A stretch of 64,000 bases of DNA from Nostoc sp. TCL26-01 (GTDB lineage Bacteria > Cyanobacteriota > Cyanobacteriia > Cyanobacteriales > Nostocaceae): the NCBI RefSeq assembly GCF_013393945.1, contig NZ_CP040297.1:372001-436000 (forward strand). The letters are read 5' to 3'. The notes under the pieces were generated by a model that saw only the letters and a program-made list of their open reading frames with translations, was not told where the DNA came from and ran no database searches. The position numbers and the translations under genes were made by a program. Shown here in pieces: positions 7,684-62,543 of the stretch (its first letter is position 1; the number at the start of each line of letters is the position of its first letter).

Positions 7684-8286
7684 TTACGAATTAATAATTC
7701 CCTGCACAAAAATATCTACGCAGGTTTCAATATATTTCTGACAACTATAACTACTTTGCTTCAGCTTGGCGTTGCGGCAAAGCATCCCCGCTAATAACAT
7801 TCCTGTAAACATATCCACTGCTGGTACTGGATCAAAGTCGTTTCTCACAGTACCTTGTTGCTGATGCGATCGCAAATAATCTACCAGTTTTTCTCCTAAA
7901 GGTTGAGCTGCTGCTTCAATAATTTGCTTGGCTGCTTCTGGATGACGTTTGGCTTCTCCAATAAAAGTACGAATCAAATCTTCATGGGCTTCCAACATTG
8001 TATTGTAAAGCTGGGCATATCGTGTTAAGTCAATTCTCAAATCCTGCGTCCATGCTTCGGGACTAGCTAAAACTTCTATCTGAAGTACCAAAGCATTTTC
8101 AATAACTGTTTTTAACAGTTGCTCTTTATTAGCAAAATGGCGAAATAAAGTTACCTCATTTACACCAGCAACACGTGCTATTTCACGGGTAGTTGCTCCT
8201 TGTACACCTAAATTGGCAAATACTTGTGAAGCCGCTTCTATTAATTTTGTCCGGGTAAGGGCAGATGAACGGATAGTTTTAATCAT
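7684..8286 (-). CDS. TetR/AcrR-family transcriptional regulator
   Basis: A helix-turn-helix repressor of about 200 residues. The DNA-binding domain is clear: LIEAASQVFANLGVQGATTREIARVAGVNEVTLFRHFANKEQLL. The C-terminal two thirds are helical, as in ligand-binding domains of the family. The ATG at 8286 is chosen; a GTG at 8298 would add four residues, but a TATAAT box lies at 8307-8312 on this strand, too close for a normal leader with the GTG. It is convergent with the SDR-monooxygenase pair, so it may control that operon, though this cannot be shown from position alone. Confidence 0.88.
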   Translation of the reverse strand: MIKTIRSSALTRTKLIEAASQVFANLGVQGATTREIARVAGVNEVTLFRHFANKEQLLKTVIENALVLQIEVLASPEAWTQDLRIDLTRYAQLYNTMLEAHEDLIRTFIGEAKRHPEAAKQIIEAAAQPLGEKLVDYLRSHQQQGTVRNDFDPVPAVDMFTGMLLAGMLCRNAKLKQSSYSCQKYIETCVDIFVQGIINS

Positions 8287-8450
8287 TCTCGCTGGCACGT
8301 ACTTGCATTATAGGTTTTGAGAAAAACAGGTTTGAAAGTAAGATAAATTATCACAAGACAATATGTAAATGATTTTTAAAAAATCATCAAATTTAAAATG
8401 TATCCCTTGCTACGAAAAATTCCATGTTGGGTGATGCTACACCCCAGCTA

Positions 8451-8602
8451 ATACCAATTCACTAAAAATATGATACAGATCCAAACACGGAAAGCCTTGT
8501 TTTACAAGGGTTTCTTAATTTTGAATTTTGCGGAAAGTTCTGTAGGCGGGTTTCCCGCCGTAGGAAACTTTTCAAGACGAATTTTGAATTTTGAATTGGT
8601 AT
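8451..8602. mobile_element. MITE-like element ending in ATACCAATTCA
   Basis: A 152-base stretch is bounded by perfect 11-base inverted ends (ATACCAATTCA at 8451-8461, TGAATTGGTAT at 8592-8602). Inside are repeated TTTTGAATT words and a GGCGGG-TTT-CCCGCC hairpin at 8545-8559. It encodes nothing and fills most of the gap between the TetR and acetyltransferase genes. The same end sequence recurs inside the element at 62056-62308. Confidence 0.5.
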
Positions 8603-8611
8603 AACCTCAGC

Positions 8612-9112
8612 CTAACTCACTCTAGATTTCTCCAGTTTTTTACTCATCTTAGAAACTGGAACTATTACCCCAGTTCGCAACTGATGAGCTTCTTTCTTGA
8701 TCAGATTAAATCCTAGTCGCAAATAAAATCCCTCAGCATAAAGACTAGCTGTAGTAATTACTTGATCTATCCCTTGCTGACTTGCTTCCTGACAAAAACG
8801 CTCTACTAAAGCTCTGCCAATTCCTCTATTTTGATAATGAGGATGGACATATAAAGTGATTAATTCATCAATAATATAACTAGCAAAACCAACAACACGA
8901 TCGCACTCGATAGCCACCCAGAATGTTTCTGATTTCATTCTCTTGACAATATTAGAACCATCTGGCTTTTCTCGATAATTTCGCCAAGCTAATAGTTCTT
9001 GGTGGTTGTAAAAAGTTGTCGGTAAAGCTTTGATGGCTGCAATATGAATTGCACTCATCACCCAAGCATCTGTTTCTTCTGCCCGACGGAGAAATATTTC
9101 CTCAGCATTCAT
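8612..9112 (-). CDS. GNAT-family N-acetyltransferase
   Basis: The 166-residue protein has the GNAT order: an N-terminal strand (IFLRRAEETDAW), central strand VGFASYIIDELITLYVHPHYQNRG, and the acetyl-CoA-binding loop QNRGIGRALV followed by a helix and the late strand VITTASLYAEGFYLRLGF. It should move an acetyl group from acetyl-CoA to an amine of unknown identity. An in-frame start exists at 9220, but the extra 36 residues (rich in Cys and Ser) do not fit the family, and the ATG at 9112 begins right before the first strand. No strong ribosome-binding site helps the choice. Confidence 0.85.
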   Translation of the reverse strand: MNAEEIFLRRAEETDAWVMSAIHIAAIKALPTTFYNHQELLAWRNYREKPDGSNIVKRMKSETFWVAIECDRVVGFASYIIDELITLYVHPHYQNRGIGRALVERFCQEASQQGIDQVITTASLYAEGFYLRLGFNLIKKEAHQLRTGVIVPVSKMSKKLEKSRVS

Positions 9113-9579
9113 ACACAAATCACTGGTTGCACAATCTGTCTTCTGATTTCTGGAAAATTTTGACTCGCTGCTTGAACACACTAGCACCTCAACGCAATGT
9201 GTTTCTTGAGAGTCTCTCAATAATTCTGCCGCGATCGCTAGTCCAAAATCAATCCCTGCTGAGAGGAATAAACTAAATCGTTACAACTATCACATATCAG
9301 CGTGCAGCATAATCCCTCACAAATTAAGGGACTATAAATAACGGTAAACCTATCGGTAATATGTATATTATATTTTAATCACACATAAGTCTATCGATAA
9401 ACCGTATATTATTAAATAACTAGCAATTAAAGAAATTCACAAAGCAAATTCAGAGCTAATTCAGTTACAGGTTCTGATATTTGTCACATTGCGCTGTGCT
9501 GAGTTGAATAGCTGCTCCAAGCTTGTTCAATAGCGTTTTTACTGAACCAGGAACGATGAGAAAATAACCAGGAGTAAAT
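9113..9579. other. AT-rich gap between divergent genes
   Basis: This is the divergent upstream region of the acetyltransferase and DUF442 genes. It is AT-rich in its middle (9340-9420), with CTATCGGTAATATGTATATT and a related CTATCGATAAACCGTATATT, possibly an imperfect operator pair. Nothing else is recognised. Confidence 0.4.
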
Positions 9580-10050
9580 GTGATCAACGCCATACGGATT
9601 AACGAAAACTTGACAACCACAGGACAAGTCATACCCAGACAGCTAGAGCAAGCTATTCAAGAAGGGTTTAAATCGGTTTTAAATTTGCGATCGCCTGACG
9701 AGTTAGGATTTTCCCTAGATGAGGAGAAAGTGGCACAAGCGTTAGGGTTACATTATATGAACGTGCCACTCAAACTAGAAGCCTTAAACGAAGAACTGAT
9801 TACGAGTATTTTGGCAACCTTAGAGCATTTGCCTAAACCAGCCGTGATACACTGTGCCGCAGGGATGCGATCGACTGGAATAGCCTTACTGAGTGTCGCC
9901 ATCAAAGAAGGATTAACACCAGAGCAAACCCTAGCCAAAGCCAGGAGTCTAGGGTTTAGCTTTCTAGAACACTCTGGCATTAATCCGCGACTCAAGCAAC
10001 TCTTTGTAGACTATGTGAATAAACACACGAATGTAGCGGTATCTTTTTAA
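9580..10050 (+). CDS. DUF442-type protein phosphatase-like domain protein
   Basis: A 156-residue stand-alone domain resembling the phosphatase-like part of beta-lactamase-hydrolase-like (BLH/DUF442) proteins. It opens with the GQVxPxQLEQAIQEGFKSVLNLRSPDE block and has the P-loop-like motif HCAAGMRS with C92 and R97, the shorter C-x4-R spacing of this family rather than C-x5-R of true tyrosine phosphatases. Such domains accompany sulfur-metabolism hydrolases, but no metallo-beta-lactamase domain is fused here. The start is GTG at 9580, preceded by GGAG five bases upstream; the overlapping ATG is out of frame. Confidence 0.8.
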   Translation: MINAIRINENLTTTGQVIPRQLEQAIQEGFKSVLNLRSPDELGFSLDEEKVAQALGLHYMNVPLKLEALNEELITSILATLEHLPKPAVIHCAAGMRSTGIALLSVAIKEGLTPEQTLAKARSLGFSFLEHSGINPRLKQLFVDYVNKHTNVAVSF

Positions 10051-55286: not shown

Positions 55287-55592
55287 ATCCTCTAAGCTGA
55301 GGTTTTCTCTTTGTCCAAAGATTGTAGGGGCGGGTTCATTAAGATCATTGTTAATCATTAATCATTTCTGTAAACCCGCCCCTACCGCTTGTGAGAAATG
55401 GAGGTTACGCAAAACAGAACGAAGGTAGCGGTAATACCCTGCGGGAAGCCTTCGGCTACATGAATTACCGCTACGTAATAATACGATTTTCCGCCCAATC
55501 TGGCGATCGCACAAGTTATAGCATGAGGAGAATCTACTTACTGAACTATACTAGTCTTGCGGCAGGGGGGATAATAATAGGAAAATCTGTCA
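55287..55592. other. Gap with two inverted repeats before the HEAT genes
   Basis: An inverted repeat with perfect 13-base arms GTAGGGGCGGGTT / AACCCGCCCCTAC stands at 55324-55336 and 55373-55385. A second, GTAGCGGTAAT / ATTACCGCTAC, at 55425-55435 and 55464-55474, encloses a GCC-TTC-GGC hairpin. No T-runs follow. Short frames over this region are repeat-derived. Confidence 0.7.
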
Positions 55593-57590
55593 ATGTCCTT
55601 GAAAGGAGCAGAAATTGCGAGGATCATAAAATTTGCTAATGAGAAGCAGCCGAGTCTGTTGTTAGCAATTTCCGGGGTGGCAATTATGACAACTTTACCA
55701 ATTGTGTTGCTGGCCTCTACTCCTGAAGTTGCTCATACTCGTTCACTAGCGGTTGATCACGCAGAGGTCACTGTAATAAAGGCTTCTGCACTGATTAATA
55801 AACAAGCGTGTAGCTCTCTCAAAATTTCTCAGGCTATTGAACGGTGGCAATCTCAAATTGTTGAATCCACTCAAATTTTAGTAGAGTGTGGCACTGAAGC
55901 AACTGCACCTCTGATTCGACTGCTGGAAGATGAAAGCAAAGATACCCTTAGCCGTCGTGCTGCGGCTAGGGTTTTGAGTCAGATTGGTTCTCCGAAGGCG
56001 ATCGCTGCACTAATTAGGATCGCTCAACAGCATCGCTCAGGTATTCGTGATAGCGCATTCAGGGCGATCGCCGATATTAATCCCCAAGCCAGAGATACCG
56101 TTCCTATTCTGATTGTGGCTGTCGCCGATCAGGATCTAGAAGTCAGCAGAGTGGGAATGGCAGCATTACGCCGCATCGATCCAGCTGTGCCAAATCAAGT
56201 GATCAGTTTTCTTCAAGAAGCCTTAAGAAGCAACAATACTGAAAGACGCAACACAGTTCGTTCCCTACTGAATCAACTTAGTTCCCATTCGCAAGCCAAT
56301 ATTTCATTGTTAACTCAGGCACTTGAGAGCCAACAAGAGCCAACAAGAGCGATCGCCGCCTATGTTCTGCTTCAGCTAGGACGCAAAGCCCAAGTTGCAA
56401 TTCCAGTTCTGACGAAAGCTATGCTTGATACAAGTAGCTCTGTTCGAGACACGGTTGCTTGTGCATTAGGGCGAATCGGTTCCAGGGAAGCTATTACTGT
56501 TTTAATTACGCAGTTAAAAACAGGAAATGAAGCAACTCAAGCCAGTGCAGCGATCGGACTCAGTTCTCTGACGGCTGAAGCAAGAGAAGCACTTCCCGTC
56601 TTAATTGCAGCCCTCCGAGACAACAATGAACAGGTTCGTAGCATGGCTGCCTATGCGTTGGGGCAGATGCAGAAACACGCACGTCGAGCAATTCCTGCAT
56701 TACTGGGAAGGTTAAGCGATCGCAGTGCTAATGTACGCATAAGTGCTGCTTATTCATTAGCACAGATTGCTCCAGACGATCCTAGAATAATTCGCCTTCT
56801 CGTCAGGCAAGCAGTTTCAGATGTCGATCCAACAGTTCGAGACAGTGCTACCGAATCTTTAGGACAAATTACCCCAGAGGCAGCTTCAACCCTACTGGAA
56901 ATTTTTGCCAGTCAAAACGAGAATGAGGCAGAGGCAGCTGCCCAACTCTTGCTAAATTTAGGCTCAACGGTTGACTCGTATTTGACCACTGAGAATCTTC
57001 CTAAAATACTACAAGGCATTTCCCATGTTCGGTTGAGTTTTCCGTCTAACTCTCACAGAATCGTGTTTGCGAATTATGCCCTTCGGCAACTCGGCTCTAA
57101 CATTGTTCCAACTCTCATTTCATCTTTAAATAGCCCAAATGAAGATATCCGAGTGGGAGCAACCTTAGCTCTATTGATCGGTTATTCAGAAAAATATTTC
57201 AATCGCCAATCCATTGAACCCGCTATTCCAACATTGACTCAAACGTTTCGCAACAGCCGATTACATACATTGTGGAAAAGTAAAAATCAAGCTCTAGTTA
57301 TGGCAGCAACTCAGGGTGATCAGGAAGCTTACTCATGGGTTGCAGAAATCGTGTTTGGCGATCGCCTTGGATTATCTACTTTAGCATTGCTGATTTGGTT
57401 AGATGAATCGTTTCTGGATGACCTCAAACGTGAAAATGCGATCGCTACTAACTTCGTGCGAGAAGAGGTTTTTGGTATAAGTGCAGCAGGAGGAGGAGAA
57501 TTAGTAGCGGCACTTCCACTCAAGAACAACCGTCCTGCTATTTGTCGTATAATTTTTATGCAAAAATTTCTTTGGAGATGTCGTCAATAA
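55593..57590 (+). CDS. HEAT-repeat protein 1 of the trio, exported or membrane-anchored
   Basis: The 665-residue protein starts with a hydrophobic segment (about 20-42, SLLLAISGVAIMTTLPIVLLAS), then has C73 and C99 on a helical cap and about a dozen HEAT/PBS-type repeats (for example DTLSRRAAARVLSQIGSPKAI, SSVRDTVACALGRIGSREAI). The end is GGGELVAALP followed by the tail RPAICRIIFMQKFLWRC-RQ, with C651 and C663. The same N-terminal Cys pair and tail recur in the next two genes. HEAT repeats form curved solenoids for protein binding; a periplasmic scaffold with disulfides is inferred. The next gene starts 17 bases later. Confidence 0.85.
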   Translation: MSLKGAEIARIIKFANEKQPSLLLAISGVAIMTTLPIVLLASTPEVAHTRSLAVDHAEVTVIKASALINKQACSSLKISQAIERWQSQIVESTQILVECGTEATAPLIRLLEDESKDTLSRRAAARVLSQIGSPKAIAALIRIAQQHRSGIRDSAFRAIADINPQARDTVPILIVAVADQDLEVSRVGMAALRRIDPAVPNQVISFLQEALRSNNTERRNTVRSLLNQLSSHSQANISLLTQALESQQEPTRAIAAYVLLQLGRKAQVAIPVLTKAMLDTSSSVRDTVACALGRIGSREAITVLITQLKTGNEATQASAAIGLSSLTAEAREALPVLIAALRDNNEQVRSMAAYALGQMQKHARRAIPALLGRLSDRSANVRISAAYSLAQIAPDDPRIIRLLVRQAVSDVDPTVRDSATESLGQITPEAASTLLEIFASQNENEAEAAAQLLLNLGSTVDSYLTTENLPKILQGISHVRLSFPSNSHRIVFANYALRQLGSNIVPTLISSLNSPNEDIRVGATLALLIGYSEKYFNRQSIEPAIPTLTQTFRNSRLHTLWKSKNQALVMAATQGDQEAYSWVAEIVFGDRLGLSTLALLIWLDESFLDDLKRENAIATNFVREEVFGISAAGGGELVAALPLKNNRPAICRIIFMQKFLWRCRQ

Positions 57591-57607
57591 TTTAAAATTA
57601 GTTATTT

Positions 57608-58690
57608 ATGATTAATATTGTAATTCAATTGAGTGTAAGTTTAATTATTTTACTTCCCTATTTCACTTTTAGCGGTTTGTTGAAAAGTAATTTTAATAAC
57701 TCACTAATCAACTTAACTAATTATAAAAAAGCACAGGAAGTAAGTACAAAGATATGTACAAACACAAGAATTGAGGATTTAATTAGTCAATTACAAACTT
57801 TAAAAGGCTCATCAGTTGAGATCACTTTTATCCTTAACGAGTTGGTTAGTTGTGATTCACAGGCTGTTCCTGCTTTGATTAAAGTCTTTGAAAATGAACA
57901 AGAAAAAGTAATGGTTCGTCGGATTGTAGCTAGAGCATTAGGAAAAATTGGCTCCCAAGAAGCTATCTCTGTATTAGTTAAAGTCGCTATAAATAAAAAA
58001 TCACCTGTTTATGACAGCGCTATTAGAGCTTTAGATGATTCTGCTTTAGGACTCATATTCTTAGTTACTGCTGACCCTTTACAGCAAATGCCTATTGACA
58101 GACAAAAAGCTATTCCACTGCTTGTTCAAGCGTTAAGTCATGAGGATGAAAATATTCGATCTGCTGCTGCTGAAGCTTTAGGCAAAATTGGTCTAGATGC
58201 CCAAATTGCGATTCCAAACTTAATTGGACTTGTTGAAGATAAAAGCAGAACTGTTCGGGCTGAAGCTATTAACGCATTAGCACAAACAGGAAAGGCAGGA
58301 ATTAATGCTTTAATAGAAGCCATTAAAAACAAAAAAATAAGTTTTAGTTCTGGAGCTATAGCTCTCGTTCAATTAGAAGATAATTCAAACGTTAGGGATG
58401 TGGTAAAGAGAGCTACTCCATATTTACTTGATGCCTTTCATAATAATAAAATAGCTGGTCAAGATAGATGGATTTTAGTTCAGCTTCTAAATGCTACTGG
58501 TCAAACAAAGGCAGCAGATGAAGTATTTTCTGCATTAATTAACAGTGAAGAATCTCGTCCTATTTTGCAAAGATTGCAACCAGGTGGTGCAGAACTTGCC
58601 CTAGAAGCAGCGACTTCACGAGGAATCGCCAGAGAACCTGCTATATGCCGATTTAGCTTCATGCGTCGAATTTTATGGAGATGTCGTTGA
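57608..58690 (+). CDS. HEAT-repeat protein 2 of the trio
   Basis: A 360-residue relative of the preceding protein. It has a hydrophobic N-terminus (about 1-25, IVIQLSVSLIILLPYFTF), cysteines C50 and C82 around the first helices, five to six HEAT repeats (MVRRIVARALGKIGSQEAI, ENIRSAAAEALGKIGLDAQ, RTVRAEAINALAQTGKAG) and the tail GGAELALEAA then EPAICRFSFMRRILWRC-R with C347 and C359. Its stop codon overlaps the next start in TGATG, so the three HEAT genes form one operon. AT content is higher than in gene 1. Confidence 0.85.
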   Translation: MINIVIQLSVSLIILLPYFTFSGLLKSNFNNSLINLTNYKKAQEVSTKICTNTRIEDLISQLQTLKGSSVEITFILNELVSCDSQAVPALIKVFENEQEKVMVRRIVARALGKIGSQEAISVLVKVAINKKSPVYDSAIRALDDSALGLIFLVTADPLQQMPIDRQKAIPLLVQALSHEDENIRSAAAEALGKIGLDAQIAIPNLIGLVEDKSRTVRAEAINALAQTGKAGINALIEAIKNKKISFSSGAIALVQLEDNSNVRDVVKRATPYLLDAFHNNKIAGQDRWILVQLLNATGQTKAADEVFSALINSEESRPILQRLQPGGAELALEAATSRGIAREPAICRFSFMRRILWRCR

Positions 58691-59688
58691 TGTTTTTTTA
58701 TTACCAACAACTCTTGAAGCTAACTTTGCAAATTTTTCTGGGATTTTCATCGGGTCTGGCTGCTTATTTTTTATATTCTTCACCAGTCTTTCCACAAATT
58801 GCTCAATCAACCAATGAACATAATTCAGAATTTCTACTCAAAGATGTCCTAATTCCTGCATCACGAATCTGTTCTAATTCTGAGATTCAAACCTACATTA
58901 AACAGCTAGATTTGCCTTCAGAAATTGCTATTTCTAAAGCGTCTTATTATGCCTTAGTATCTCAATGTAAAGCATCAGCCGTGCCAGCATTGATTCAGGC
59001 ATTAAAGAGTCAACAGGAAAATATCCGAGCAAATGCGGCTTTAGCAATTGGCGAAATTGGCACAAAAGCGATCGCTGCAATTCCAGCTTTAATAGAGGCG
59101 TTAGACGATGAAAGTAACGCTATCCAAATAAATGCTGCCTATGCACTTGGACAAATGGGATGGGCTGCTGAACCTGCTATTCCTAGCTTAAGTCAACAAT
59201 TAAAGGATGAAAATCGAGCAGTAATTACCAGTGCTGCTTATGCGATTGGTCAAATTGGCTCATCACTTCTGAATGAAAGGTATTTCCAGATTTACGGAGT
59301 AGTTACTCAAGAGAATGGTCGTCGCCGTGTCAGCTTATCAAAAGAAGGTAGCGAACAACAAAAAGCACTTGCGATCAAACTATACATCACTTTATTTAAT
59401 GCCTTCAATGAACTTTACACTGCCCGTATCGGTAATCGTGAAGCTTGGAATCAGGATGTTAATGCTGAGACTGCCTTTCTTAGTATTGTTGATGCAATAG
59501 ACGCAATTCGTATGATTAATAATTTGTATGCCGATATTAATCCTCATCATGGAGGAACACCATATACTAATCAAGGTGGAGTAGAACTGCTTGCGACAGT
59601 ACAAACCGATATAGATAGTAAACGTCCTGCTATTTGTAAAGTTCGTTTGCTGAACCGAGTGATACCGAGATGTAAAAATAAAGCATAA
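58690..59688 (+). CDS. HEAT-repeat protein 3 of the trio
   Basis: A 332-residue protein (from the ATG inside TGATG at 58690; an in-frame start at 58675 adds five residues). It has an N-terminal membrane or signal segment (LQIFLGFSSGLAAYFLYSS), the Cys pair in RICSNSEI and VSQCKASAVP, and three or four HEAT repeats (ENIRANAALAIGEIGTKAI, NAIQINAAYALGQMG, AVITSAAYAIGQIG). A non-repeat region of about 110 residues follows, then GGVELLATVQ and the tail RPAICKVRLLNRVIPRC-KNKA with the same C-x11-C spacing. Translation is coupled to gene 2. Confidence 0.83.
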   Translation: MFFYYQQLLKLTLQIFLGFSSGLAAYFLYSSPVFPQIAQSTNEHNSEFLLKDVLIPASRICSNSEIQTYIKQLDLPSEIAISKASYYALVSQCKASAVPALIQALKSQQENIRANAALAIGEIGTKAIAAIPALIEALDDESNAIQINAAYALGQMGWAAEPAIPSLSQQLKDENRAVITSAAYAIGQIGSSLLNERYFQIYGVVTQENGRRRVSLSKEGSEQQKALAIKLYITLFNAFNELYTARIGNREAWNQDVNAETAFLSIVDAIDAIRMINNLYADINPHHGGTPYTNQGGVELLATVQTDIDSKRPAICKVRLLNRVIPRCKNKA

Positions 59689-59739: not shown

Positions 59740-61905
59740 ATGCAGCCAACTACGTTCAAGGATCGGAATCTCCGGGGGCGTTCCTTCAAAGGACAGGATT
59801 TGTTTGGGCAAGACTTTAGCGGTGCTGATATTCGAGGTGCAAACTTTACTAATGCTACATTAATTGGGGCTAATTTCAGCCAAACGAAAGCAGGTTTACG
59901 ACGACGAGAGGCGATCGCTCTTGTTACTCTCGCATTTTTTTTAGCAATCCTCTCAGGTTTCATGACGGGTTATGGCGCAGGAGTGATCGCCAGCCTGATT
60001 GCTTTAGGAAACCAGATCAACCCCCACTCGTTTCTCTCTGGAGTCGTAGCTGTGACTCTCCTGGGAATATTTACTGGCATCACTTTTCGTAAGGGGTTAG
60101 CCTCAGCTGGAGGTACAGCCGTTTCTATTGCGATCATTGCGGCGCTATTTGCGGCGATCGCTTCTCAGGAAGTTGCTGTTGTTGCCCTCGTGCAAACTAT
60201 TGGGATTGTCAGTGCTGTCGCCGGGGTGATGGTGGGAGCCTTAGCAGTGGCTCTGATGCTAGTGATGATGGGAACCAGAGCCTTAGCAGTTATGGCTATT
60301 TTAGCTGTTCTCAGTACCTCTGTAGGCACTCAATTTGGGATTGCTGGAATTGAGTCTGACCAAATCTTTGTAATTGCCTGTGTAATTGCAGGAGCGATCG
60401 CGCTGGTGATGCTCTGCCTCAGTGGTTATACTGGGTGGCGTGCTGGGAAAGGCAGCAGGCGTTATATGCTAATTCGCAGTCTGGCGGTAGCGATCTCGAC
60501 TCAGGGAACAACTTTTCGCAAGGCTAACCTCACCGATGCCGATTTTACAGCAGCGATTCTCAAAAATACAGATTTTCGCGGGACAACACTAACTCGCACC
60601 TGTTGGCTTCAAGCCAAGCAACTAGAACAAGGGCGGTTAGAAGGCACTTATCTCAATGATGCTGCAATTCGGCAACTGGTAATCAGTAAAGATGGCCGAG
60701 AACAAAATTTTGATGACTGCAATCTGCGGGGAGTAAATCTGCAAGATGCAAATTTGACAGATATCAGCTTGATTGGGGCTGATTTGAGCGAAGCGACTCT
60801 ACAAAATGCTGACATCTCTAGAGGTAAATTGGTACAAACTCAGCTTTACCGAGCTAATTTAACCTGTGCCTGCTTGACGGGAGCCTACATTCAAGATTGG
60901 GGTATTTCCACTGATACTTGTTTAGATGAGGTGAAGTGTGAATACATTTATATGCGACTACCGACTAAAGACGATCCCGATCCTTGTCGCAAACCGGACA
61001 ATCGTCAAGAAACCTTTAAAGACGGTGACTTTTCAGATTTCATGGCTCCCATTTTGAAAACACTAGGATTATACCGCCAGCAAAATGTCGATCCCCGGGC
61101 GATCGCTCACACATTTAAAACTCTCGACCTGTATCACCATCAGGGCATCGATCCGGCGGCGGCGGCGATCGCCCTGAAGCAACTTTCAGAGCAGTATCCA
61201 GAAGCAGGGCTAGAAGTAGTTGCTTTGGAGGGAAGGGGACGAGAGAAGATTCGCCTCCAGGCAGTTGTCACGGATGCAGTCGATCGCTCCCAACTTAGCG
61301 CCCGTTACTTTGCAACTTACGATGAGATTAAAGAGTTATCATATCGTGATATGCAAACTCTATTGACAGAAATCGCCCAAAAAGATGAGCGAATTCGCAG
61401 TTTAGAGCAAATGGTGAAGACAGCAATTGATAGTAACAAATTTTACGTAGAAACTTATTATCATCTGGGGGATACCGTGTCTGAAAAAAGCTCAATCAAC
61501 ATCGAAGGCAGCACCGTTAGCGGTTTAGTACAAGGTAATATTAGCGATGTCAGTGGTGTGTTGAATTTAGGGGCAATTAGTGGCGATGTCACGAATGCGA
61601 TCGGACAACTACCCAGTGCTGATGAACCAGATAAACTAGGACTCAAGGAATTGCTGACTCAATTGCAAGGGGCAATTGAAGCTGAAACCGAGTTAAGTCA
61701 AGAAGATAAAGCGGAAGCATTAGAGCAAGTTAAGGTCTTAGCAGAAGCTGGTCAAAAGCCTCAAGATGGGCCACTAAAGAAAATGGCAAATACGGCAGTT
61801 AAGGTTATCAAGGGAACAGTTGCAAGTTTGCCACAAGCGACAACGCTGGTTGAAACTTGTAGCAAATTATTACCAATTATTACCAAACTTCTAGGAGTAC
61901 CGTAA
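59740..61905 (+). CDS. Membrane pentapeptide-repeat protein
   Basis: The 721-residue protein has a first pentapeptide block (about 6-48, NLRGRSFKGQDLFGQDFSGADIRGANF), then six or so membrane helices (about 57-235), a short block (TTFRKANLTDADFTAAILKNTDFRG, about 252-278), a longer one (about 320-390, NLRGVNLQDANLTDISLIGADL) and a cytoplasmic-type C-terminal part. That part has a beta-rich segment with SINIEGSTVSGLVQGNISDVSG (near 585-605) and a helical end (LKELLTQLQGAIEAETELSQEDKAEALEQ). It lies 51 bases after the HEAT trio on the same strand. Its function is unknown; an anchoring or sensing role with the HEAT proteins is inferred from position only. Confidence 0.85.
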   Translation: MQPTTFKDRNLRGRSFKGQDLFGQDFSGADIRGANFTNATLIGANFSQTKAGLRRREAIALVTLAFFLAILSGFMTGYGAGVIASLIALGNQINPHSFLSGVVAVTLLGIFTGITFRKGLASAGGTAVSIAIIAALFAAIASQEVAVVALVQTIGIVSAVAGVMVGALAVALMLVMMGTRALAVMAILAVLSTSVGTQFGIAGIESDQIFVIACVIAGAIALVMLCLSGYTGWRAGKGSRRYMLIRSLAVAISTQGTTFRKANLTDADFTAAILKNTDFRGTTLTRTCWLQAKQLEQGRLEGTYLNDAAIRQLVISKDGREQNFDDCNLRGVNLQDANLTDISLIGADLSEATLQNADISRGKLVQTQLYRANLTCACLTGAYIQDWGISTDTCLDEVKCEYIYMRLPTKDDPDPCRKPDNRQETFKDGDFSDFMAPILKTLGLYRQQNVDPRAIAHTFKTLDLYHHQGIDPAAAAIALKQLSEQYPEAGLEVVALEGRGREKIRLQAVVTDAVDRSQLSARYFATYDEIKELSYRDMQTLLTEIAQKDERIRSLEQMVKTAIDSNKFYVETYYHLGDTVSEKSSINIEGSTVSGLVQGNISDVSGVLNLGAISGDVTNAIGQLPSADEPDKLGLKELLTQLQGAIEAETELSQEDKAEALEQVKVLAEAGQKPQDGPLKKMANTAVKVIKGTVASLPQATTLVETCSKLLPIITKLLGVP

Positions 61906-62543
61906 AGTTTCGTAGCAGTCTGGGCATCATTTCTAAGTTTCTGCAAGGCAGTGACAATGGCTACCGAATAGGTTTTAAAATTCAATTTCTGATATAGGAA
62001 TCCGATTTGATTTCTGTTGGCGTAGCCTGTGCTTACACAAAAAATATAAGTATGTGTAGGGTGTGTTATACCATTTCACTTTAATAATGATACAAATACG
62101 TGAGTCCGTCAGTCCGTCAGGGATTGTAAATCCCTGTCTCATAGCTAAAGTCCTCTCAAGAGGACTGAATATCAGAGTCCATTTTAATGGACTTAAGCTA
62201 TGAGACCACCGTTTTAACCGTTTTAACGGTGGGCGGACAATACCCAACGAGTAAGCTATATGTATCAGGATTTTTGTGAATTGGTATTACTTCGTTAACG
62301 CACCCTACAAAAATAAAAATCTATCGCCACATTTAAAGCTTGCCACGCCACTACGTATCTGTTCAAAAATCAAGTAGTCATCCTATAGTCACGGAGCAAA
62401 CAAATAGGTACAGGCAACTAAACCAGCTACCAAGTTAGAGGAATTCATCATTGGCTTAAATCAAGAAGTAGCAACTTACTTGATGAGGATTATTCGTTAT
62501 AATTAGTAACATAACAATAGTAAACCATCTTAAAAACTCCACT
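61906..62543. other. Non-coding region with structured element
   Basis: This 638-base gap is dominated by the element at 62056-62308. Near 62018 is GGCGTAGCCTGTGCTTAC, a relative of GGCGTAGCCTGCGCTTGC at 30905. The last 230 bases are unremarkable and should hold the promoter of the next gene. Confidence 0.5.
62056..62308. mobile_element. Composite palindromic element with multi-branched core
   Basis: Outer 13-base ends GTAGGGTGTGTTA and TAACGCACCCTAC pair with one mismatch, and inner ATACCA-TTCAC ends follow. The core (62104-62238) folds on itself: CAGGGATT/AATCCCTG, a nine-base stem CTCATAGCT/AGCTATGAG enclosing the two hairpins AGTCCTCT/AGAGGACT and AGTCCATT/AATGGACT, then CCACCGTT/AACGGTGG, all closed by GTCCG/CGGAC. 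No protein is encoded. It may be a MITE or the remnant of a transposon end. Confidence 0.7.

What the first reader, a model, noticed from the sequence alone, without database searches (positions are those of the whole stretch)
55593..59688. Three-gene family of exported HEAT proteins with a shared two-cysteine tail
Seen: three consecutive genes encode proteins of 665, 360 and about 332 residues, each with a hydrophobic N-terminus, a cysteine pair 26 or 32 residues apart around the first helices, HEAT repeats, then GG-x-EL and a tail of the form PAIC-x8-(W/P)RC at or very near the C-terminus. The C-x11-C spacing is identical in all three (C651/C663, C347/C359, and the same in gene 3) although repeat number differs. 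Genes 2 and 3 overlap by TGATG. Inference: a conserved terminal tag with paired cysteines suggests disulfides, metal binding, covalent anchoring or processing. I know of no named family with this tail.
Basis: partly seen in the sequence, partly recalled or inferred. Interest (0 to 1): 0.82.

Follow-up and report, generated by a model that had tools for sequence, protein, structure and literature searches.

The report
Exported HEAT proteins with cystine-loop tail
Three neighbouring cyanobacterial genes make exported repeat proteins that all end in the same short, positively charged, two-cysteine tail; the tail recurs in about 20 other cyanobacteria, always beside a gene for one kind of membrane protein, which points to an undescribed two-part cell-envelope sensing system.

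Summary
Profile searches show the tail belongs to a wider, patchy cyanobacterial family (36 carriers in 22 genomes, about 8% of sampled Nostocaceae plus three other families of the order). The usual form is PPxMC[KR]IPxI[RK]xxL[RK]WKC (C-x12-C). It is strongly cationic: one acidic residue in 466. The tail is a module: it also ends short secreted proteins without HEAT repeats, some with no other mature cysteines, and one ricin-lectin/HEAT protein. In 21 of 21 assessable loci a carrier lies next to a ~720-residue protein with pentapeptide repeats around about six predicted membrane segments (window 59740-61905). These partners form a well-supported clade; some relatives are fused to CHAT caspase-like domains. 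Carriers evolve fast (dN/dS 0.4-0.6), the partner slowly (0.11). Best explanation: interchangeable extracytoplasmic sensor arms that dock through a disulfide-closed tail to a membrane transducer. Interaction, disulfides and function are inferred. No Pfam, NCBIfam, PHROGs or PADLOC family, nor any paper found, describes the tail.

The parts
55593..57590 (+). Gene 1: exported HEAT protein, 665 aa; N-cap C73/C99; tail C651/C663
   Evidence: orthologue L060 4030-6123 (57% identity)
57530..57587 (+). Tail of gene 1, RPAICRIIFMQKFLWRCRQ
   Evidence: tail profile E 6e-9
57608..58690 (+). Gene 2: exported HEAT protein, 360 aa; N-cap C50/C82; tail C347/C359
   Evidence: orthologue L060 6126-7202 (70%)
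58637..58687 (+). Tail of gene 2, PAICRFSFMRRILWRCR
   Evidence: tail profile E 3e-9
58690..59688 (+). Gene 3: exported HEAT protein, 332 aa (337 aa from ATG 58675); N-cap Cys pair 32 apart; tail C-x11-C
   Evidence: orthologue L060 7202-8194 (70%)
59623..59685 (+). Tail of gene 3, RPAICKVRLLNRVIPRCKNKA
   Evidence: tail profile E 2e-7
59740..61905 (+). PpTM: 721-aa protein, pentapeptide repeats, about six predicted membrane segments (roughly 55-232), second pentapeptide domain, C-terminal helical region; constant partner of tail proteins
   Evidence: Pfam; hydropathy; adjacency in 21 of 21 loci; tree; dN/dS 0.11

Best explanation
The cassette is a two-part envelope system. The tail-bearing proteins are exported. 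Their N-terminal parts (HEAT solenoids of 0 to about 25 repeats, a ricin-type lectin, or only a linker) are interchangeable, fast-evolving arms that bind something outside the cytoplasmic membrane. Their C-terminal 13-14 residues close into a disulfide loop carrying a short amphipathic, cationic sequence, which is the common plug that docks each arm to the outer face of the PpTM membrane protein, or to the membrane beside it. PpTM is the constant transducer: about six membrane segments place both pentapeptide domains and the C-terminal region in the cytoplasm. In some relatives that region is fused to, or beside, a CHAT caspase-like protease, so the output is probably an assembly or proteolytic (conflict or stress type) response. 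Shown: export-type N-termini, tail conservation and modularity, strict linkage to one PpTM clade, contrasting evolutionary rates. Inferred: disulfide formation, docking, ligand binding, topology, output.
For: Linkage: in 21 of 21 loci with assessable context a PpTM gene is the immediate neighbour, in different chromosomal contexts, on a conjugative plasmid (pMIC7113.01, NC_019739.1: WP_015186200.1 + WP_015186201.1) and once in convergent orientation. No tail hit at E<1e-5 in 212 Nostocaceae genomes lies outside such a locus, apart from one at a contig edge. Specificity: PpTM paralogues are in 164 of 204 genomes, but the tail-linked ones fall on one side of a branch with 100% SH-aLRT; the window and N. 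foliaceum PpTM form their own deep lineage, matching their own C-x11-C tail. Modularity: the same tail ends short secreted non-HEAT proteins (L118 6223-6585, L119 7566-7925, L115 409-735 and 757-1158, L117 4723-5190) and a ricin-B/HEAT protein (L120). In L118, L119 and L115 409-735 the two tail cysteines are the only ones in the mature chain, so any intramolecular disulfide must be within the tail. Chemistry: mean net charge +3.5, one acidic residue in 466, W-K-C invariant in all 26 C-x12-C tails. Variable arm, constant partner: window versus N. foliaceum dN/dS about 0.47, 0.58, 0.41 for carriers against 0.11 for PpTM; gene 1 residues 430-640 are only 27% identical while the tail is kept. Context: CHAT domain fused to PpTM in L119, L187, L198 and at threshold in L189, or adjacent (L107); NACHT proteins next to other PpTM paralogues.
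Against: No physical interaction, disulfide or phenotype has been shown. Linkage would also arise from co-inheritance as a mobile cassette. PpTM extracytoplasmic loops look short. A few PpTM of the same clade lack a tail gene (L185, L186, L187). AlphaFold gave no confident tail (pLDDT below 50) and no usable PpTM model (pLDDT 33), so docking could not be modelled. The window's own PpTM has no CHAT fusion.
Confidence: 0.42

Rival explanations
1. The tail is an envelope-sorting or anchoring signal: a C-terminal tag recognised (perhaps by PpTM itself or an export machine) to place or attach the proteins in the wall, sheath or outer layer, without signalling.
For: Common tag on otherwise different exported proteins; constant membrane partner next door; amidase genes flank several loci.
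Against: No sorting motif plus hydrophobic segment; up to 46 residues follow the tail in some members; no protease, sortase or ligase is consistently linked; PpTM resembles a signalling scaffold with CHAT fusions rather than a transpeptidase.
Confidence: 0.2
2. The two Cys pairs are only structural caps that stabilise the ends of an extracytoplasmic solenoid.
For: N-cap cysteines flank a predicted helical hairpin (C50 before helix 52-64, C82 after helix 69-81, pLDDT about 75-90); HEAT carriers with intact ends have both Cys pairs.
Against: The tail also ends short secreted proteins with no HEAT repeats; W, K and basic positions are as conserved as the cysteines; strict linkage to PpTM is unexplained. 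This remains the likely role of the N-cap pair alone.
Confidence: 0.15
3. The carriers are secreted weapons: a cationic cystine-loop peptide that acts on membranes, delivered by HEAT or lectin arms, with PpTM as the immunity protein.
For: Small SP-linker-tail proteins look like peptide precursors; strong cationic amphipathic character; patchy distribution, a plasmid location and fast-evolving arms.
Against: In polymorphic weapons the terminal toxic part diversifies, here it is the constant part; no dedicated exporter or maturation peptidase; several carriers stand beside a single PpTM; CHAT fusions suit signalling better than immunity.
Confidence: 0.1
4. The proteins are bilin lyases or other photosystem assembly factors of the EZ-HEAT class with an unusual tail.
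For: Weak NCBIfam similarity to CpcE, CpcF and NblB.
Against: All scores are far below the curated cut-offs (at most 55 against 200-600 bits), limited to generic HEAT repeats; exported; linked to PpTM, not to phycobilisome genes.
Confidence: 0.03

Closest known systems
Cyanobacterial EZ-HEAT proteins (CpcE/CpcF bilin lyases, NblB; PF13646, PF03130)
   Same: Same HEAT repeat type.
   Different: Exported, N- and C-terminal Cys pairs, no phycobilisome linkage; scores far below the family cut-offs.
Pentapeptide repeat proteins (PF00805)
   Same: PpTM has two pentapeptide domains.
   Different: Membrane segments between them, extra C-terminal region, dedicated exported tail partners.
Constant/variable conflict systems of multicellular bacteria (TRADD-N, VMAP/STAND; PMC7159879, PMC8195603)
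   Same: Constant module combined with fast-varying HEAT or pentapeptide modules and CHAT/caspase or NACHT proteins; accessory, cyanobacterium-rich.
   Different: Here the variable part is exported and joined by a cystine-loop tail; no TRADD-N, EAD or STAND domain was detected in the cassette.
PADLOC candidates chat, SAVED_CHAT, PDC-M14B
   Same: CHAT parts of L107 and L119 match 'chat' (E about 1e-14); last ~85 aa of PpTM weakly match PDC-M14B (1e-4).
   Different: Partial domain matches only; no complete defence system is called.
Single-disulfide cationic peptides such as bactenecin (recalled, not tested)
   Same: Short cationic hydrophobic loop closed by two cysteines.
   Different: Here a constant tail of larger exported proteins.

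Membership tests
CpcE/CpcF/CpeY/NblB HEAT family | Score above NCBIfam curated cut-off | tested here: not met
   Best 54.6 bits (CpcF, cut-off 220), 46.1 (NblB, cut-off 300), 24.8 (CpeY, cut-off 600)
Pentapeptide repeat protein superfamily (for PpTM) | Pfam pentapeptide repeats above gathering score | tested here: met
   PF00805 94.2 bits against 20.2
Exported cystine-tail family proposed here | Tail profile match with C-x8-13-C near the C-terminus, basic and lacking acidic residues | tested here: met
   E 3e-9, 6e-9 and 2e-7 for the three genes; table; charges
Exported cystine-tail family proposed here | N-cap Cys pair 26-32 residues apart in HEAT members | tested here: met
Exported cystine-tail family proposed here | PpTM gene adjacent | tested here: met
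   21 of 21 assessable loci; L115 is at a contig edge and unresolved
Exported cystine-tail family proposed here | Tail cysteines form an intramolecular disulfide | not testable with these tools
   Only inferred from short carriers with two mature cysteines
TRADD-N / VMAP / STAND conflict systems | TRADD-N, EAD or STAND NTPase domain in the cassette | tested here: not met
   No such Pfam match in genes 1-3 or PpTM; NACHT occurs only beside other PpTM paralogues
Known anti-phage defence system (PADLOC) | Complete system components | tested here: not met
   Only generic HEAT hits and a partial PDC-M14B match
Sortase or PEP-CTERM type C-terminal sorting signal | Motif, hydrophobic helix and basic end at the C-terminus | tested here: not met
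   Tails end the protein or are followed by polar residues
Cationic disulfide-loop antimicrobial peptides | Membrane activity of the cyclised peptide | not testable with these tools
   Composition only

The most novel reading that the evidence does not exclude
A previously undescribed bacterial transmembrane recognition system in which any exported arm (HEAT solenoid, lectin or linker) becomes an input to a pentapeptide membrane transducer, sometimes with a caspase-like output, simply by carrying a 14-residue cystine-loop plug: a plug-in receptor system of filamentous cyanobacteria.
Probability: 0.27. Interest if true: 0.85.

Novelty: new variant of a known kind. Interest (0 to 1): 0.62.

Why it matters
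It gives a family of unannotated exported cyanobacterial proteins a diagnostic signature and a specific partner, and turns a vague 'HEAT protein next to a pentapeptide protein' into a testable two-part system. If the tail docks to PpTM, it would show how pentapeptide membrane proteins, present in several copies in most Nostocaceae and mostly without known function, receive signals from outside, and would link them to caspase-like CHAT proteases and so to programmed responses in multicellular bacteria.

Tried and rejected
Exact PAIC DNA pattern in 386 genomes: the candidates outside the own genome that I inspected (L014, L018, L025, L061) were out-of-frame or non-ORF chance matches. First tail profile from three sequences was too narrow. 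First scan with P0002 alone in genome contigs found nothing; the tail alignment then found Nostoc foliaceum. Bilin lyase reading rejected on scores. Phage origin: no match in phages, no PHROGs match for the HEAT proteins. Class-wide tail search added no further family beyond the order. Empty-site comparison in 12 same-genus genomes: flanks present but not contiguous, so no clean empty site. AlphaFold of PpTM was unusable. Foldseek of gene 2 found only generic HEAT/ARM and designed repeat proteins. Literature searches found no description.
Full report
What is there. Window genes 1-3 encode HEAT-repeat proteins with hydrophobic N-termini, an N-terminal Cys pair and the tail PAIC-x9-[WP]RC. A tail profile finds only these three places in the 7.4-Mb genome. 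The window lies in a genome of the same family as Nostoc foliaceum.

Conservation. The complete four-gene cassette (three HEAT genes plus pentapeptide gene) occurs in Nostoc foliaceum FACHB-393 (L060), a different genus, with different flanking genes. The HEAT proteins are 57-70% identical and the pentapeptide protein 91%. In gene 1, residues 70-430 are 82% identical, residues 430-640 only 27%, yet the tail is kept. Counting synonymous and non-synonymous changes gives dN/dS near 0.47, 0.58 and 0.41 for the three carriers and 0.11 for the pentapeptide protein.

A wider family. A profile of the N-terminal Cys region found strong relatives in many Nostocaceae, and their proteins end in a related tail with one more residue: PPxMC[KR]IPxI[RK]xxL[RK]WKC (C-x12-C). 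A tail profile then found carriers in 18 of 212 sampled Nostocaceae genomes after setting aside weak matches in non-gene frames; a further member with C-x8-C (L120) came from the N-cap search. Three more families of the order have carriers (G593, G624, G701); a class-wide sample added none. In all 36 carriers were tabulated. HEAT carriers with complete ends have both Cys pairs; N-cap matches lacking a tail are truncated by contig ends or lie in a degraded locus (L190), apart from the divergent L120. One further locus (L206) has its tail in another frame from its HEAT gene, a frameshift or a sequencing error.

The tail is a module. Five carriers are short secreted proteins without HEAT repeats (108-155 aa; L115 twice, L117, L118, L119), and L120 has ricin-type lectin repeats before the N-cap and HEAT part. 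In L118, L119 and the 108-aa L115 protein the tail cysteines are the only ones after the signal peptide, so an intramolecular disulfide would have to close the tail on itself. The tails have a mean net charge of +3.5 and one acidic residue in 466; 3% of background 14-mers from the same proteins have net charge 3 or more and no acidic residue. W, K and the second C are invariant in all 26 C-x12-C tails.

The partner. In all 21 loci whose context can be read, a carrier is the direct neighbour of a ~720-aa protein here called PpTM: pentapeptide repeats, about six predicted membrane segments, pentapeptide repeats, a C-terminal region (Pfam; hydropathy). The order is mostly carrier then PpTM; in L109 and L110 two carriers flank it, in L205 it is convergent. 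A named example is the conjugative plasmid pMIC7113.01 of Allocoleopsis franciscana PCC 7113, WP_015186200.1 and WP_015186201.1. PpTM paralogues occur in 164 of 204 Nostocaceae genomes, but the tail-linked ones are on one side of a fully supported branch together with three that lack a tail gene (L185, L186, L187). The window lineage is deep and separate in this tree, as is its C-x11-C tail.

Hints of output. CHAT (caspase-like) domains are fused to the C-terminus of PpTM in L119, L187 and L198 and, at threshold, L189, and lie beside PpTM in L107; NACHT proteins lie beside unlinked PpTM paralogues in L195 and L197. PADLOC gives 'chat' for these domains and a weak PDC-M14B match for the end of PpTM. 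Papers on cyanobacterial conflict systems and metacaspases describe constant and variable module architectures that include pentapeptide, HEAT, caspase and STAND parts (PMC7159879, PMC8195603, PMC2853523), but I found no description of this tail or cassette.

Structure. AlphaFold for gene 2 gives a confident HEAT core; C50 lies just before the first helix of a hairpin and C82 just after the second, a plausible place for a disulfide, but distances were not available. The tail is not confidently placed. The PpTM model is unusable. Fold search of gene 2 returns generic HEAT/ARM solenoids.

Interpretation. The pattern of a constant tail on changing arms, strict linkage to one clade of a membrane protein and slow evolution of that partner is best explained by docking of exported arms to a membrane transducer through a disulfide-closed cationic loop. 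This is an inference (0.42). Rivals are a sorting or anchoring tag, simple structural caps, and secreted cationic weapons with PpTM as immunity. Co-inheritance on a mobile cassette could explain linkage without direct contact, and the presence of PpTM without tail genes shows that the dependence, if any, is one-way: tail proteins need PpTM, not the reverse.

Noticed in passing
window 62055-62309: About 255-bp element with 14-bp terminal inverted repeats (TGTAGGGTGTGTTA / TAACGCACCCTACA) and an internal hairpin; its middle has roughly 25 or more near-identical copies (about 95%) in the genome: a MITE-like repeat just downstream of PpTM.
   Followed up: partly
window 55324-55490: Upstream of gene 1 lies another short dispersed repeat (26-bp imperfect palindrome GTAGGGGCGGGTT..AACCCGCCCCTAC) with pieces in other genomes of the genus; the cassette is thus bracketed by repeats.
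   Followed up: partly
L106 11006-11692, L107 4260-4943, L111 3641-4327: A second, short Amidase_3 gene (228 aa) follows PpTM, while a full-length amidase paralogue of about 610 aa precedes the cassette beside CTP synthase; in this copy the DPGHGG motif reads NAGHGG.
   Followed up: partly
L187 5373-9656: A PpTM fused to a CHAT domain next to a HEAT protein with an N-cap-like Cys pair but no signal peptide or cationic tail: possibly a cytoplasmic variant of the system.
   Followed up: no
L206 7469-7753: The tail (CRIAAIRRILRWKC) lies in another frame directly after the 981-aa HEAT gene: frameshift or assembly error.
   Followed up: no
L062 (Scytonema sp. NIES-4073 plasmid3) 8124-10004: HEAT-repeat protein on a transposase-rich plasmid near a pentapeptide gene; no tail checked.
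   Followed up: no
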